The position numbers and the translations under genes are program-made. Positions 45,941 through 51,951 of a DNA stretch of 51,951 nt are shown piece after piece. Under the pieces are notes generated by a model that had not been told where the DNA came from, searched no databases, and worked only from the letters and a program-made list of their open reading frames with translations. The DNA lies in contig CACWOZ010000010.1 in assembly GCA_902762655.1 (NCBI GenBank), positions 1-51,951 on the forward strand. Direction: 5' to 3'. Source of the stretch: an uncultured Bacteroidia bacterium. GTDB lineage: Bacteria; Bacteroidota; Bacteroidia; Bacteroidales; UBA932. The first letter of the stretch is position 1; every line of letters begins with the position of its first letter.

Positions 45941-46408
45941 AAAATCACAGAGGTAATCCTTATCCTTGGGTAGGCATGCTCCGGAATCGGCCTTGCACAG
46001 GCCCCGGATACGCTTTTTATCTCCACCTCGCAGGTGGTGCATCTGCGTTTTGCCTCTGAACTGAAGTACGTGAATCTCGGCTCCCGGGACATTGTGGCCA
46101 AGATTGTGGACGGCAGCAAGGATTTCGTGGCCGTCAAGGCCCGGGAGACATTCGGGGAATGTACCTCGATGTCGTGTTTGGAGGCCAGCGGTGCGATGCA
46201 TACCTTCATTGTGGCCTATCTGGAACATCCGTCCAGGCTGGAAATTGATACGCAAAGCGCCCAGTCCTTACCTTCTTTTTCACCTTCCAACGCCGACGGC
46301 GGGCCGTCGGCACCGAGGTTTGCTGTGGAGAGCAAGCGGCGCACCAAGCGTGGGCTCCAGTATGAGAAGGCTGTTTTTCCTAAACAGTCATACGGGCTGG
46401 GGATGTGA
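45941..46408 (+). pseudogene. traN (DUF4138 conjugation protein) remnant
   Basis: The frame reads an apparent signal peptide interrupted by an in-frame TAG at 45971, then AQAPDTLFISTSQVVHLRF, then LKYVNLGSRDIVAKIVDGSKDF, then an ETFGECTSMSCLEASGAMHTF block and VAYLEHPSRLEIDT. This matches the N-terminal part of Bacteroidota conjugative-transposon TraN (pattern TxxVHxxFxxxxKYVxLGS, then VKA and a T-x-SxxxxxG-xHxF-V-Y core). After EIDT the frame no longer resembles TraN and ends KRRTKRGLQ to SYGLGM and a stop, perhaps a fusion to another gene tail. No start codon is available and no other tra gene is near. Confidence 0.7.
46292..46311. repeat. GC-rich inverted repeat
   Basis: gccgacgg / ccgtcggc, an 8-bp stem with a 4-base loop inside the traN remnant, close to where the TraN-like similarity ends. 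It may mark a recombination joint. The 116 bases from 46409 to 46524 hold nothing recognisable. Confidence 0.4.
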
Positions 46409-46524: not shown

Positions 46525-48900
46525 TTACAAAGATATGCTTTTTCGGTCAGTAAAACAATATCGGACAAACTCTCCCGGGCTTTCCAGATACAGATTCCCG
46601 TAGGAGGCGGCGCCCACGATTTTTGCGTGCGAGCCAAGGGTATGGGCGGCGAGGTAGAGGAACAGATCCCGGAAATTGCATTCCGGATTCTCCGTCAGAT
46701 AATCTGTCAGACTGAGGGAGAACCTGTCGCACATCCAGATGCGCGCCGAGGAGTTCCAGTGCTCAGCCCACGACATTTCGTTGGCGCTTGCCCCGGAAAT
46801 GGCGAGGACTCCCCGGATTCCGTCAACATTGCGTATGACAGCCTCCCCGTAGCACGGTTCGGCGCATATCAGCAGCTTTCGGAAAGTCATCTTTTCCGCT
46901 GTCTCCTTGAGGAGCCCGGCGCCGAAGCCTTCGCCCGGGGGTTTGTCTCTCCAGCAGAATTCATCGGCTCCGTCGGTGGGCTGGCTGTGTCCGTGGCCGC
47001 TCCAATAAAGAAGGACATTCGCTCCGGCGTCCTGCGGCAGCACTATATGGAGCCGTCCGCTGCTCCTGCCCAGCAGGATGTCGGCTATATCGGCGGGGGA
47101 GAGGTCCTTGCTGTCGTAATCCATGACGGCGGCGGGAAGGGCGTCTGTGCCTCCAAGAAGGTCGGGCCCGTCTTCCGCGTTCCTGACAATCCCCGGTTCG
47201 GGATTCATCTCGTCCGAAGCCATGTCCTTGTCCAGAACGAGGATGATATGGTCGTCCGGGAAACCGCGGCTGCGGAGCATCTGATACACGCCGAGCACAT
47301 CTGCCTGATGCCGGTAGTTGCTGAAACCGTTGCTGCCCTGCACGAGGACAGCATACTGGCAGTCGAGTTCGGGATAGCTGAAAACCGCGCCGCCCGAAGC
47401 CTGGGAGTCGAAATCGGACCTTGCCTGATGCTCGCTGTAGAGATATCGCCAGGCGGCGTTGGCATCGGCGGTACGGCCTCCGGATCCTCCGAAATAACCC
47501 CGGTGATGGATTTCACCGTCCAGAATCTGCCAGAGGACATAGGTGGTTGAAGTGGCCGCGGTGTAGGTCTGACTGTCGAAACTGATTTCTCCTGACGCAC
47601 CGATGAAGTGAAGCAGCCGCCCCTGCTCGAGTGCATTCAGATACACTTCCATGGATGTGGCGTTCCAGGCAGCTCCGCCGAGTTCCTCTCCGTCGGCGTT
47701 CATGGTGATGTCGATGATGGCCTGGTTGAAAGCCTTGTTGTCGGCATCCACGCCCGAATGTTCCACATGGCATGCGGCGAAACCGACGACCATGAGCGCA
47801 TCGTAAAACTTGCATTCGGCGAAGCCGGGTTTGGAACCGAAACGTACCTCGTAGCTGAGTTCGAAACCCGTGGAAGGGTCTGCGTAGGGCGAAAATCCTT
47901 CGTATCCCTGCAGGATATTCCATGAACGCGGCCCTATGGCATCCACATCTTCTTCATAAAAGCCAGGGATTGCAAAATATGTGTTGTACGCCGATTTGAA
48001 CAGCTGCCAGTCTTTGTCGTTGGCGGGGTCGTCGGGATCCGTGCTGTCGTGAAGCAGGCTCCAGAATTCATCGTTCATAACCGCTGCGCGGTTGGCGCGG
48101 GCCACCTCATACATCTGATTCGCCGTTTCCGCCACACAGAAAACAGCGGACTCCGCCACTCCCTGCCCGGTTGCAACCGCACGGTATTTGTCGAATATGG
48201 AAAGCAGTTCCTGCGTGTTGCCGTACTGCAGGTTCTGCTGGAGGATGATATTGTTCTGAAGTGAATAGAACGGAGCCCAGTAGTTGAATGTCATTCCGTA
48301 TGCATCCACCGGAGAGAAAAATGCGGCCTTCGGACTGCGTATGATGGTGTCGTAGTACTTGCTGACAGAAGCATAACGGGTCATCATCAGGCCGGTGAAT
48401 GAGACGTCACTTTCCGTCAGGGCCCATAGGAATGGCTCCTTGTTTATATTCAGGCCGCTCGTCGTAACTGCATACCGGCGTATAATGTCTTCGCTGGTCG
48501 CCGTCGGCGCCATGAGAGGCTTGAGCGTTCGTTTGCAGGCAGGAGCGAAGTCGGCGATGTTCTCGTTTCCGAAAGGCCCCACGACTGCAATCACATCTTC
48601 CCTTCCGGCCAGTTCGCGGCTCAGCTTCACAAGGTCTTCCGACAGTTCGTCGTACCATTCAAGTTTGAGGTCGATTGCGACGGCGTTGTGTCGCTGCGCT
48701 TCCCGAAAGTTGTCCAGGAACCATTTCGCCGTGCGCTCAAGCCGCTTTTTGGAAGTTTTGTCGCCAATGGGCGCCACGACGGCTACCGTGCGTTCTGTCC
48801 AGTGACGCTGGCTCTGATACACCGTCTCTTTATTCCCGCATGCCGTCAGGATCAGGCCCGCGGCGATGCACAGCAGGATACCAATCAGCCTTTTACTCAT
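46525..48900 (-). CDS. Lipoprotein fusing a periplasmic binding domain to a legumain-like (C13) protease
   Basis: A 791-residue protein. The lipobox is LILTAC with Cys21. Residues about 37-465 form a type I periplasmic binding domain of the LivJ/amino-acid kind (RTVAVVAPIGD, AVVGPFGNENIADFAPACKR, MAPTATSEDI; C-terminal lobe FYDALMVVGFAA and TYVLWQILDGEI). Residues about 515-765 are a legumain domain: YAVLVQGSNGFSNYRHQADV, then MNPEPGIVRNAEDGPDLLGG. Catalytic His636 lies in YWSGHGHS and Cys683 in AEPCYGEA. Residues matching the legumain P1-Asn pocket are also seen: Arg530, Glu681 and Asp725. So the protease appears active with asparaginyl specificity. It overlaps the upstream BMP gene by eight bases. 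No ABC transporter genes are near. Confidence 0.85.
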   Translation of the reverse strand: MSKRLIGILLCIAAGLILTACGNKETVYQSQRHWTERTVAVVAPIGDKTSKKRLERTAKWFLDNFREAQRHNAVAIDLKLEWYDELSEDLVKLSRELAGREDVIAVVGPFGNENIADFAPACKRTLKPLMAPTATSEDIIRRYAVTTSGLNINKEPFLWALTESDVSFTGLMMTRYASVSKYYDTIIRSPKAAFFSPVDAYGMTFNYWAPFYSLQNNIILQQNLQYGNTQELLSIFDKYRAVATGQGVAESAVFCVAETANQMYEVARANRAAVMNDEFWSLLHDSTDPDDPANDKDWQLFKSAYNTYFAIPGFYEEDVDAIGPRSWNILQGYEGFSPYADPSTGFELSYEVRFGSKPGFAECKFYDALMVVGFAACHVEHSGVDADNKAFNQAIIDITMNADGEELGGAAWNATSMEVYLNALEQGRLLHFIGASGEISFDSQTYTAATSTTYVLWQILDGEIHHRGYFGGSGGRTADANAAWRYLYSEHQARSDFDSQASGGAVFSYPELDCQYAVLVQGSNGFSNYRHQADVLGVYQMLRSRGFPDDHIILVLDKDMASDEMNPEPGIVRNAEDGPDLLGGTDALPAAVMDYDSKDLSPADIADILLGRSSGRLHIVLPQDAGANVLLYWSGHGHSQPTDGADEFCWRDKPPGEGFGAGLLKETAEKMTFRKLLICAEPCYGEAVIRNVDGIRGVLAISGASANEMSWAEHWNSSARIWMCDRFSLSLTDYLTENPECNFRDLFLYLAAHTLGSHAKIVGAASYGNLYLESPGEFVRYCFTDRKSISL

Positions 48901-49957
48901 TCCCGGCCTCCTTTTTCATGGCGTCTGCGTGTATGGTTTGGAGCAGATCTTCCGGCAGATAACGTTCAATGATGGCTTTCTGCAAATCGGTGTAGGGATG
49001 CAGGACGACTTCCGTCCATCCGTCGGCAAATGACAGGGTCTGGTGCTTTGGCATCCCCTCTGAAGACAGCCACTGGCCGACGCACAGATCAATGGCCCTG
49101 TCGATATGTTTGACTACGGAAAACGGGCAGTGGTTAGAGATGCTGACAACGTCGATGCCTATATAATCAAATCCTCCGAACAGGCCGCTCATGCGGTAGA
49201 ATGTGCCGGAAGCGCCCCCGCACACCGGAAATACGAGCTGGGCGATCGGGAGGGTTTCGGAGTCGTAGACTATGCGCATCGCGTCTTCGTCGTCAATCCT
49301 GAATCCGCCCCCTTCTTCATCGGAAATCCATTCCACCAGAAGCTCATGGTCATCCCCGGTCAGGACGTATTTTGCATTGAAGCCTTCTGTAAAACCTTCC
49401 ACGGACTCCCTTATGGCCGACGCCAGGGGATTCGCGGCAATCAAGAGCAAGTTGTCCGAGAACGCGGTTGCGACCGCTCCGGCCTCGTACATGGCGCTAT
49501 AATACGGCAGGCAGATGGTGGATCCTTTGCCGGGAAGCGGATCCTTCGTTTCAAGGTACAGCAGGTCAGCGCGCGGACATGCTCCCAGCTCATCGCTGTG
49601 CCGGCGGAGATAATCGTCGTATTCGCTCCCCGCCACTATGAGAAGTCTCCGCACCGTGTCCCGGAGCATTGACATCTGCTCGAAATAAGTCTGGAGGATT
49701 GCAAGGCCCTCCGCGCTTGTGGACGGTGAAAACTGCATTGTGCGCAGCCCGTTTGCGAGGGCGGTCCGCTCGACTCCGGCATAAATCAGATCGTTGTAGC
49801 TCCTGTCGCCCAAAGCGCCGGGATCGTACACGACTGTCACCAGAGCTTTGCCGGAGGGGACGTCGGCGGGGTCCGGTTCATAATGTGCCTTCCTGCACCC
49901 CATCGCCACCAGGGCAATTGCGGTCATCAGCAGATATTTTGCAGGCAGAGTATTCAT
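48893..49957 (-). CDS. BMP/PnrA-family substrate-binding lipoprotein
   Basis: A 354-residue lipoprotein (lipobox ALVAMGC, Cys about 21). After a short linker the domain begins VTVVYDPGALGDRSYNDLIYAGVERTA, matching the GDxSFN opening of basic membrane protein/PnrA-type nucleoside-binding proteins. Later parts are LPYYSAMYEAGAVATAFS, IRESVEGFTEGFNAKYVL and DYIGIDVVSISNHCPFSVVKHIDRA. The ligand is unknown. It is the first gene of a two-gene unit with the legumain fusion. The promoter box TAATTTTG lies 19 nt upstream. Confidence 0.78.
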   Translation of the reverse strand: MNTLPAKYLLMTAIALVAMGCRKAHYEPDPADVPSGKALVTVVYDPGALGDRSYNDLIYAGVERTALANGLRTMQFSPSTSAEGLAILQTYFEQMSMLRDTVRRLLIVAGSEYDDYLRRHSDELGACPRADLLYLETKDPLPGKGSTICLPYYSAMYEAGAVATAFSDNLLLIAANPLASAIRESVEGFTEGFNAKYVLTGDDHELLVEWISDEEGGGFRIDDEDAMRIVYDSETLPIAQLVFPVCGGASGTFYRMSGLFGGFDYIGIDVVSISNHCPFSVVKHIDRAIDLCVGQWLSSEGMPKHQTLSFADGWTEVVLHPYTDLQKAIIERYLPEDLLQTIHADAMKKEAGNE

Positions 49958-49976: not shown

Positions 49977-49984
49977 CAAAATTA
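49977..49984 (-). promoter_or_regulatory. -7 box (TAATTTTG) of the BMP-legumain unit
   Basis: TAATTTTG on the minus strand, 19 nt before the ATG at 49957, in the 79-base space shared with the divergent muramidase gene. Confidence 0.5.
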
Positions 49985-50036: not shown

Positions 50037-50774
50037 ATGAAAAAGTTTAGTTTTATGCTTGCAGCTTTCTGCTGCTTCCTTGGTTTGTCGACAGTGGTGT
50101 CATGCAGTAAAGACGACGGAGAAGAGACAAGTGAACTTCAGCGTGTGCTGTACAGCGAACTCGGCTTGCCGGATGACGGATCCAATAGCTCGAAGTATGG
50201 AATCAGCGACGAAGACATCGAGACCCGCGCAAAGGGAATGGGTGTCGAGGCTGCCGCGCTGAAGGCAGTCTGGAAGGTGGATACCGGCGGTCACGGTGGT
50301 TTCCTGGCCAATGGCGATCCTATGATTCTTTTCCAGGGACATATCTTCTGGCAGCAGCTCAGGACGAGGGGCCTTAATCCTCAGAATTACGTGAAAGGTA
50401 ACGAGGATATTCTTCACCAGAGGCTGGACAAATCGAAGTTTGTCGGCGGAGTCGGTGAATGGGAACGTCTTGAGAGGGCCGTCGCGATTCATGAAGATGC
50501 CGCTCTCTCTTCTGCGAGCTGGGGCATGTTCCAGATAATGGGTTTCAATTACGGAAAGTGCGGCTGCAAGTCCGTGCAGGAGTTTGTTTCCAAGATGAAA
50601 GAAAGCGAGGTCGCTCAACTTGATTTGTTCGTGGCTTTCCTGAAATCGAATTCAAAGATGGTCGAGGCTCTCAAAAACCGCTCCTGGGTAGAGTTTGCCA
50701 AACTTTACTACGGCCCTACAGAGTACAATATCTACGCTGACAAGCTTTCCAAGGCATACGCAGCCCTCAAGTAG
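50037..50774 (+). CDS. DUF3380 N-acetylmuramidase lipoprotein
   Basis: A 245-residue lipoprotein (lipobox STVVSC, Cys about 23) with a DUF3380 peptidoglycan hydrolase domain. Motifs are the substrate groove ILFQGHIFWQQL, the catalytic block AIHEDAALSSASWGMFQIMGFNY with the candidate Glu/Asp, FVSKMKESEVAQLDLFVAFL, and the end SWVEFAKLYYGPTEYNIYADKL. Most relatives are phage endolysins or effectors. This one is tethered to a membrane. Upstream in-frame ATGs at 50019 and 50022 exist, but the lipoprotein signal starts best at 50037. It is divergent from the BMP-legumain unit, and a terminator follows. Confidence 0.85.
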   Translation: MKKFSFMLAAFCCFLGLSTVVSCSKDDGEETSELQRVLYSELGLPDDGSNSSKYGISDEDIETRAKGMGVEAAALKAVWKVDTGGHGGFLANGDPMILFQGHIFWQQLRTRGLNPQNYVKGNEDILHQRLDKSKFVGGVGEWERLERAVAIHEDAALSSASWGMFQIMGFNYGKCGCKSVQEFVSKMKESEVAQLDLFVAFLKSNSKMVEALKNRSWVEFAKLYYGPTEYNIYADKLSKAYAALK

Positions 50775-51036: not shown

Positions 51037-51386
51037 TTGTCGCCGTCTACGTGGTAGGTGTTACCCAGGGAACGTGCAGTTACTGGCGTCGTATCCAAAT
51101 GTTTTTTCAAGAACCCGGCGAACTCTTCCGAGAACCGCGTCCCTTTTGCTACCAGACGGGGATATACATCCAGCACGCAACTGTTGCCATCCGGACGGAG
51201 CCAGCGCCTGCGACGGATGTGCAGGACCAACTTCTTGTCGCGTACGGGGAAGTCATTCAGGACTGTTTCCTCGGTGAACCCCTTCGGCGAGTAGTCCTGC
51301 GTCTCTTCAATGCGGTTGTCACGCTCATCAAAGTACAGATGAAGCGCCGGGACTTGGGCTTTGGGAGCGTTTCCATAATCCTGATT
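51037..51386 (-). pseudogene. ISAon1-type transposase N-terminal region, truncated
   Basis: The frame reads LHLYFDERDNRIEETQDYSP, then KGFTEETVLNDFPVRDKK, LVLHIRRRRWLRPDG, RLVAKGTRFSEEFAGFL and LGNTYHVDGD. The KGF-x-DFPxR-x-LHIRRRRW-x-GTRx-x-EFAxFLK pattern is that of the N-terminal region of ISAon1-family transposases of Bacteroidota. The catalytic (DDE) part is absent, and an in-frame TGA lies at 51387-51389. The left edge joins an unrelated gene tail and the right edge joins the kilA-N gene, so it is an IS scar. Confidence 0.65.
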
Positions 51387-51951
51387 TCAATTACATCGAA
51401 TTCGAGGCAATTGAGAGAGAGGCGGGCCTTAACAGTTTTGTCTTGACTCCTAAGAGATGGGTAGAACAAACCGCCGCCAAGGGGATTGTGACCAAACAGG
51501 GGCGCTATGCAGCGACTTTTGCTCACCAAGACATAGCGTTTGAGTTCGCTTCCTGGATTTCACCAGAATTTAAACTGTACATCGTAAAGGACTATCAGCG
51601 CTTAAAGTCGGAGGAGAATAGCCGTTTGTCCCTTGGATGGAATTTGAATCGAGAGCTGACCAAGATAAATTATAAAATCCATACGGATGCCATCAAGGAG
51701 CACCTGGTTCCAGAAGATATATCTACAAGGGCTCAGTTTTTCATCTACGCCAATGAGGCCGATGTATTAAATGTTGCGCTGTTTGGGAAGACTGCCAAAA
51801 TGTGGCGTGATGAGAATCCATCTTCTAAAGGGAACATTAGGGATGATGCTTCATTGAGAGAGCTTATTGTGCTCGTGAATCTGGAGAGTATGAATGCCGA
51901 ACTAATTAAACTCGGCCTTTCGCGTTCAGAACGTGCTATTCGCCTCAACAA
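51353..51951 (+). CDS. KilA-N domain protein, 5'-truncated and running off the window
   Basis: An open plus-strand frame without a start codon that continues past the window end. It reads LGLWERFHNPDFNYIEFEAI, then EAGLNSFVLTPKRW, KGIVTKQGRYAATFAHQDIA, FEFASWISPEFKLYIVKDYQ, RLKSEENSRLSLGWNLNREL, INYKIHTDAIKEHLVP and EADVLNVALFGKTAKMWRDE. This is the KilA-N domain of phage-derived and stand-alone Bacteroidota proteins, beginning at the LGLWE block. The first 50-60 residues are missing where the ISAon1-type fragment abuts (about 51350). It is probably inactive, unless an alternative start is used. Local composition is AT-richer than the core genes. Confidence 0.8.

What the first reader, a model, noticed from the sequence alone, without database searches (positions are those of the whole stretch)
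46525..48900. Periplasmic binding domain fused to an apparently active legumain-like endopeptidase on one lipoprotein
Seen: a lipobox, then a LivJ-type binding fold, then a C13 domain with His636, Cys683 and the P1-Asn pocket equivalents Arg530, Glu681 and Asp725. Known: legumains are mainly eukaryotic lysosomal or vacuolar proteases cutting after Asn/Asp, and bacterial C13 members are less studied. I do not know this domain pairing as a described architecture. Inference: the binding domain could sense or capture a ligand and gate or direct proteolysis at the cell surface.
Basis: partly seen in the sequence, partly recalled or inferred. Interest (0 to 1): 0.85.

Follow-up and report, generated by a model that had tools for sequence, protein, structure and literature searches.

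The report
Legumain-type surface protease of toxin-like operons
A gut-bacterial lipoprotein that joins a nutrient-sensor-like domain to a legumain-type protease belongs to a widespread gene cassette that, in many related bacteria, sits right next to perforin-like pore-forming genes, which hints at a protease-controlled lytic weapon.

Summary
ORF 46525-48900(-) is a 791-aa lipoprotein: LivJ-type binding domain plus C13 domain (Pfam 3.5e-33; closest solved structures by sequence are legumains). Across 87 places in related loci (some near-identical), Arg530 is kept in 87, His636 in 86, Cys683 in 86; residue 681 is Glu (80) or Asp (7). The architecture is a family: 89 of 89 C13 ORFs in the 87 loci plus window first scanned carry the LivJ-like domain. 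In 72 of 87 a PnrA/BMP-type lipoprotein gene lies just upstream, as in the window. New finding: in 86 C13-bearing genomes searched for MACPF, 50 of 66 MACPF places lie within 10 kb of the C13 gene, all on its strand, 49 upstream; 17 loci hold three MACPF ORFs. The window's own genome has no detected MACPF; its clade instead keeps an N-acetylmuramidase lipoprotein beside the pair. Best explanation: a surface protease that matures, releases or activates co-encoded lytic lipoproteins, as C11 proteases do for other Bacteroidales toxins, with the binding domains docking or gating it. The gene association is shown; substrate, ligand, surface location and activity are inferred. My text searches of an open-access library found no description of it.

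The parts
46525..48900 (-). PBP-C13 lipoprotein, 791 aa: signal peptide with Cys21, LivJ-type domain, C13 peptidase
47491..48798 (-). LivJ-type (ANF_receptor/Peripla_BP_6) domain, about residues 35-470
   Evidence: by relatives and profile; no Pfam hit for the window copy alone
46588..47358 (-). Peptidase_C13 domain, residues 515-771, with His636 (46993-46995) and Cys683 (46852-46854); only 20 residues follow, so no legumain-type C-terminal prodomain
48893..49957 (-). PnrA/BMP-type lipoprotein, 354 aa, overlaps the protease gene by 8 bases; conserved partner (72 of 87 places)
   Evidence: Pfam Bmp 0.055 for the window copy, below cut-off; above cut-off in 5 of 8 relatives (4e-19 to 2e-5); pairing
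49977..49984 (-). TAATTTTG, Bacteroidetes-type -7 box (motif recalled), 19 bases before the BMP start codon
   Evidence: 39 TANNTTTG boxes in the window on both strands, 19.7 expected
50037..50774 (+). N-acetylmuramidase (PF11860) lipoprotein, divergent; a relative lies beside the protease gene in L001-L007 and, distantly related, in L144

Best explanation
The protein is the catalytic half of a two-lipoprotein module (PnrA-like + LivJ-C13) of Bacteroidales. It most likely acts at the outer membrane as an Asn/Asp-specific processing protease that matures, releases or activates lytic lipoproteins encoded with it: MACPF proteins in many relatives, an N-acetylmuramidase in the window's clade. The LivJ-like domain and the PnrA-like partner would dock the substrate or gate the protease in response to a ligand from the surroundings or from a target cell. 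Shown: fold families, kept active site, gene order and association. Inferred: surface location, substrate, cleavage specificity, gating, antagonistic purpose.
For: C13 homology and active-site conservation. LivJ-C13 architecture in 89 of 89 C13 ORFs of 87 loci plus window and in 38 of 43 C13-HMM hits in the other 61 loci, the 5 exceptions being weak hits (3.2e-7 to 3.2e-4). BMP upstream in 72 of 87, 69 of those overlapping or within 20 bp. MACPF association: 50 of 66 Pfam MACPF places within 10 kb, 50 of 50 same strand, 49 of 50 upstream, in 24 of the 31 MACPF-bearing genomes; by chance I expect about 0.5 (own arithmetic: 20 kb of about 3 Mb, 66 places). Co-occurrence in one family: MACPF in 25 of 67 C13-positive versus 14 of 332 C13-negative genomes, Fisher p 1.6e-12. 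Other lytic-looking neighbours: PF11860 muramidase; one secretory-lipase-like protein, PF03583 2.5e-9. Partners are mostly lipoproteins (lipobox in PBP-C13 80/87, BMP 69/73, MACPF 57/59). Precedent: surface C11 lipoprotein proteases of the same order activate pore-forming CDCLs (PMC11169675, abstract and passages), BcpT (PMC9308784, passages) and, for fragipain, Fab1 (PMC8406203, passages); that C11 and C13 are both clan CD is recalled.
Against: The window's own genome has no MACPF at E 1e-3, and 44 of 70 C13 genomes and 12 of 18 show none, so MACPF is not obligatory. MACPF also occurs without the module (14 genomes; 16 of 66 places not near it). The muramidase link is mainly within one clade. 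No cleavage site was identified, no activity measured. Genome samples are related, so counts are not independent. In BSAP-1, substitutions at candidate C11 sites seem not to matter (PMC12853789, passage cut off), so MACPF toxins need not be proteolysed.
Confidence: 0.5

Rival explanations
1. The module protects the producer: the surface protease and the PnrA-like lipoprotein inactivate or block the MACPF and muramidase lipoproteins on the producer's own surface, as an immunity device.
For: Genes sit downstream of the MACPF genes (49 of 50; maps); the CDCL operon encodes a surface lipoprotein that blocks pore formation (PMC11169675).
Against: Many genomes have the protease without detectable MACPF (44 of 70); a catalytic dyad kept in 86 of 87 is more than a blocker needs.
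Confidence: 0.15
2. Peptide and nucleoside scavenging: the operon lyses other cells and the two binding proteins with a protease harvest amino acids and nucleosides.
For: LivJ and PnrA families bind amino acids and nucleosides (family knowledge, recalled); lytic-looking neighbours.
Against: None of the neighbours that I ran through Pfam is an ABC permease or ATPase; not every operon gene was scanned. A substrate-specific legumain is a poor feeding protease (inference).
Confidence: 0.12
3. The C13 domain is a transamidase or ligase (like GPI8 or plant ligases) that attaches or cross-links the large lipoproteins on the surface rather than cutting them.
For: GPI transamidase and asparaginyl ligases are among the PDB hits.
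Against: Lipid anchors are already predicted on most partners. I did not look for a conserved acceptor signal.
Confidence: 0.1
4. General surface protease with unrelated neighbours; the MACPF clustering reflects co-location on surface-lipoprotein islands.
For: Neighbours differ among clades and 17 of 87 places have none of the recurrent partner families.
Against: Strand and order are uniform (50 of 50, 49 of 50), and the MACPF label needs 7 changes on a quick tree, at least 5 of them forced, so it is not one hitch-hiking clade.
Confidence: 0.13

Closest known systems
Legumain / asparaginyl endopeptidase (MEROPS C13)
   Same: Sequence homology over the whole catalytic domain, His/Cys dyad, S1 Arg and Glu
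   Different: Bacterial lipoprotein with an N-terminal LivJ-type domain; no C-terminal prodomain; the S1 Asp is Asn in 51 of 87 places
Bacteroidales surface C11 proteases (fragipain, doripains DpnA/DpnB) that activate BFT, Fab1, BcpT, CDCLs
   Same: Lipoprotein proteases at the surface of Bacteroidales; linked to antibacterial toxins including pore-formers (passages)
   Different: C11, cut after Arg/Lys (passage); in the passages I read the protease gene is not said to be in the toxin operon, whereas here a C13 fusion lies beside the MACPF genes
BSAP MACPF toxins (some with a BACON domain, PMC12853789, passages)
   Same: MACPF lipoproteins of Bacteroidales, BACON N-domain in part
   Different: Here often three MACPF genes followed by the PnrA-like/LivJ-C13 pair; the MACPF genes of 14 C13-negative genomes of the same family occur without it
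Two-component CDCL toxins with BcdI (PMC11169675)
   Same: Multi-subunit pore-former plus lipoprotein partner gene, protease-activated, complement-like
   Different: Different pore-former branch; no C13 or legumain is mentioned in the text (find gave 0)

Membership tests
Peptidase C13 (legumain) | Homology over the catalytic domain | tested here: met
   PF01650 3.5e-33, 115.7 bits, cut-off 22.8; legumains best in PDB by sequence and by Foldseek
Peptidase C13 (legumain) | Catalytic His and Cys | tested here: met
   H636 86/87, C683 86/87; the exception L049 has lost both
Peptidase C13 (legumain) | S1 pocket Arg, Glu, Asp | tested here: met
   All three in the window; family-wide Arg 87/87, Glu 80/87, Asp 35/87
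Peptidase C13 (legumain) | Asn-specific endopeptidase activity | not testable with these tools
   needs a bench assay
Type I periplasmic binding protein, LivJ kind | Profile similarity to the family | tested here: met
   ANF_receptor in 14/19, Peripla_BP_6 in 5/19 members; PDB LivJ-type hits of the profile; the window protein alone gives no hit
Type I periplasmic binding protein, LivJ kind | Ligand binding | not testable with these tools
   no structure of sufficient quality
PnrA/BMP family (partner gene) | Pfam Bmp above cut-off | tested here: inconclusive
   window copy 12.9 bits, below 24.1; of 10 near relatives 4 hit weakly, best 0.01; of 8 further relatives 5 above cut-off, 1 below, 2 without a hit; L102 copy no Bmp hit
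BSAP-type MACPF toxin locus | MACPF gene present in the locus | tested here: not met
   none in the window's genome; met in 23 of the other scanned loci by own HMM

The most novel reading that the evidence does not exclude
A previously undescribed, complement-like bacterial weapon: several different MACPF lipoproteins form a hetero-oligomeric pore whose assembly is triggered by a dedicated surface legumain whose fused LivJ domain and PnrA-like partner sense the target or its leaked metabolites; in other clades, including the window's, the same sensor-protease controls a muramidase or another effector instead, so the sensor-protease is a swappable trigger for different lytic effectors.
Probability: 0.25. 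Interest if true: 0.92.

Novelty: new variant of a known kind. Interest (0 to 1): 0.78.

Why it matters
Bacteroidales are major gut bacteria and fight with pore-forming proteins. If the LivJ-C13 protein is their in-operon activator, it gives a function to bacterial legumains, supplies a sensor-controlled trigger for MACPF toxins, and makes a natural parallel to complement and caspase-gasdermin logic outside animals. It is directly testable: one protease mutant and one MACPF western blot would go far to decide.

Tried and rejected
Rejected: 'a one-off fusion'; 'dead protease'. No match in PLSDB plasmids by tblastn of the window protein, so a plasmid home is not supported; other mobile elements were not tested.

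Tried without result: AF2 of the protease (pLDDT 51.4) and of the recurrent large lipoprotein family called F4 (modelled on L008, pLDDT 41.3), both too poor to rest on. hhalign of F4, F2 and F3 with MACPF matched the signal peptide and N-terminal region, not the MACPF core, so I do not call F4 a pore-former. The profile of the BMP partner gave only antibody chains in PDB. I did not look for cleavage sites.

Errors of mine: the muramidase was translated in a wrong frame and its tblastn is void; redone (the Fisher test stands). In one search the text label F4 also caught DUF4421, so the F4 group of that tree is wrong (true F4 places: 14); the MACPF and muramidase groups are not affected. The tree is a quick one with many long branches. 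The cluster that I labelled lipase (5 proteins) has one member with a Pfam lipase hit (L089); a second (L139) had none, three were not scanned.

Counting base: one search scanned the window and 87 of the 148 loci (L001-L016, L047-L057, L089-L148); L056 (same place as L049) and L145 (same as L013) were dropped, which leaves 87 places with a C13 ORF. They include near-identical copies (window, L001, L002, L003). One search scanned the other 61 loci: 43 C13 hits, 38 with the LivJ domain. Several of those loci hold weak Pfam C13 matches that are above Pfam's cut-off but were not found by my HMM (for example L024, L025 and L028). Of the 80 C13 places, 62 were fetched with flanks. For G393-G397, G399-G401, G403 and G404 the C13 coordinates were not in the script; only G403 and G404 have MACPF, and their loci L014 and L016 show none by own HMM, so their three places count as 'elsewhere'. 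The 67/332 split assumes that searches drew the same 399 genomes.

Full report
Check of the observation. The ORF at 46525-48900(-) encodes 791 aa with a lipobox ending at Cys21. At its reported E limit of 1, Pfam finds one domain, Peptidase_C13, at 515-771 with E 3.5e-33. Sequence search of PDB returns legumains, asparaginyl ligases and GPI transamidase, best E 3.1e-21; the printed alignment puts His636, Glu681, Cys683, Arg530 and Asp725 on the legumain dyad and S1 pocket (numbering recalled). The LivJ-type part is invisible to Pfam in the window protein, but 14 of 19 family members match ANF_receptor and 5 of 19 Peripla_BP_6, and a profile of ten N-domains matches branched-chain amino-acid binding proteins in PDB. 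The AF2 model is poor; Foldseek still puts legumains first.

How common. A scan of species genomes gave 16 loci, by title mostly rumen or other gut Bacteroidales and Prevotella. The window's genome has one C13 match. Surveys with PF01650: order, 52 of 393 genomes at E 1e-3, of which 7 genomes including G000 (8 places) have a strong hit (E below 1e-30), the next best being 6.9e-15; class, 2 of 395 at 1e-12; the family of G402 (genome of L013, a Prevotella MAG), 67 of 399 at 1e-12; family of G326, 4 of 18; family of G108, 1 of 13. The two other genomes of the window's own genus in the order sample have no match, so it is patchy.

Family features. With HMMs of my own, all 89 C13 ORFs in 87 loci plus the window also carry the LivJ-like domain; in the other 61 loci, 38 of 43 C13 hits do, and the 5 others are weak (3.2e-7 or above). 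In 87 places Arg530 is invariant, His636 and Cys683 are kept in 86, residue 681 is Glu in 80 and Asp in 7, and 725 is Asp in 35, Asn in 51 and Thr in 1. The one copy that lost the dyad, L049, has no BMP partner and lies after a 944-aa ORF whose start looks like a TonB-dependent receptor (my reading, not scanned).

Partner gene. A PnrA/BMP-type lipoprotein gene precedes the protease gene in 72 of 87 places, in 69 of these overlapping or within 20 bp; of the 15 without, five begin at the edge of the fetched stretch (L054, L055, L057, L134, L148), so the gene may be cut off there. L007 looks rearranged, with a partial muramidase match overlapping the start of a shortened protease ORF. The window copy overlaps by 8 bases. 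The Bmp assignment is weak for the window copy (0.055) but firm for some relatives (4e-19, 3.4e-10, 1.6e-9, 8e-9), while others give no hit. A TAATTTTG box lies before the window's BMP gene.

MACPF neighbours. Pfam first showed MACPF in neighbours of four loci (L013, L047, L050, L053). I then searched PF01823 in C13-bearing genomes: 18 and 70, 85 distinct, plus the window's genome. MACPF occurs in 31 of these 86. Of 66 places, 50 in 24 genomes lie within 10 kb of the C13 hit on the same contig, all on the same strand, 49 upstream. Of the 16 others, two in G645 are 1.6 Mb away and the rest lie on other contigs. Own-HMM maps show 59 MACPF ORFs in 23 loci, 17 loci with three, 15 of the loci with three adjacent ones. 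A common order is MACPF, MACPF, MACPF, a 370-450 aa lipoprotein (family F2), BMP, PBP-C13. In the family of G402, MACPF is found in 25 of 67 C13-positive and 14 of 332 C13-negative genomes (Fisher p 1.6e-12). Related genomes make such p values optimistic, but a quick tree of 86 proteins needs 7 changes of the MACPF label, at least 5 forced by well-supported branches.

Other neighbours. Among 87 places, recurrent neighbours within 10 kb on the same strand are F2 lipoproteins (31), MACPF (25), F4 large lipoproteins (14), F3 small lipoproteins (14), DUF4421-like proteins (10); 17 have none of the families that I tracked (families, Pfam). The window clade L001-L007 keeps a PF11860 muramidase lipoprotein next to the protease locus, divergent in L001, L002, L003, L005 and L007 and on the same strand in L004 and L006, and a distant locus, L144, has a muramidase 52% identical over 190 residues, with one gene between it and its BMP gene.

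Mechanism. Shown are the fold families, the kept active site and the gene order. I infer a surface processing protease for the co-encoded lytic lipoproteins. Precedent in the same order: C11 lipoprotein proteases activate CDCL pore-formers, BcpT and Fab1 (PMC11169675 abstract, outline and passages; PMC9308784 passages; PMC8406203 passages), and caspase-like peptidases are proposed processing enzymes of polymorphic toxins (PMC3482391 passages). The catalytic domain ends 20 residues before the C-terminus, so the legumain C-terminal prodomain is absent and the N-terminal binding domain may take over control; this is inference.

Literature. Text searches: legumain with MACPF, bacteria and operon, 0 papers; legumain/Bacteroidetes/peptidase C13, 20 of 35 listed, none on topic by title; bacterial legumain or Parabacteroides distasonis, 8 of 2,748 listed, none with the legumain term; C13/legumain-like protease with Bacteroidales/Prevotella, 10 of 4,614 listed, none with a C13 term; three MACPF/BSAP searches (11 of 11, 8 of 16, 9 of 9 listed). 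In the five papers that I searched inside, 'legumain' occurs 0 times (PMC11169675, PMC9308784, PMC12853789, PMC8406203, and the held part of PMC3482391). Most subscription journals and preprints are not in that library, so novelty is provisional.

Verdict. Function is a hypothesis with good genetic support, not shown.

Noticed in passing
window 46034-46408 (+): Fragment matching DUF4138 (PF13595, 6.4e-11, profile 9-83 of 245), a family that I recall as conjugative-transposon TraN, just downstream of the protease gene; suggests past mobile-element activity.
   Followed up: partly
window 51380-51949 (+): KilA-N domain reading frame (1.3e-9) running off the window end, phage or mobile-element like.
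   Followed up: no
L049:7344-9557: LivJ-C13 paralogue that lost both His and Cys, no BMP partner, lies after a 944-aa ORF with a TonB-receptor-like start: possibly a binding-only derivative.
   Followed up: partly
L089: Two BMP/PBP-C13 pairs in tandem, with a MACPF gene upstream and a secretory-lipase-like protein downstream.
   Followed up: partly
L144:1809-7898: Muramidase with a peptidoglycan-binding domain and a DUF2589 protein upstream of a BMP/PBP-C13 pair.
   Followed up: partly
L105:6028-7173 and L008:5924-7360: Family F2 lipoproteins (36 members by blast clustering) shared by MACPF and non-MACPF loci; the few that I scanned reach no Pfam cut-off; possible immunity, adaptor or substrate.
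   Followed up: no
L136: LivJ and C13 parts on two separate ORFs (399 and 412 aa), apparently a broken copy; left as is.
   Followed up: no
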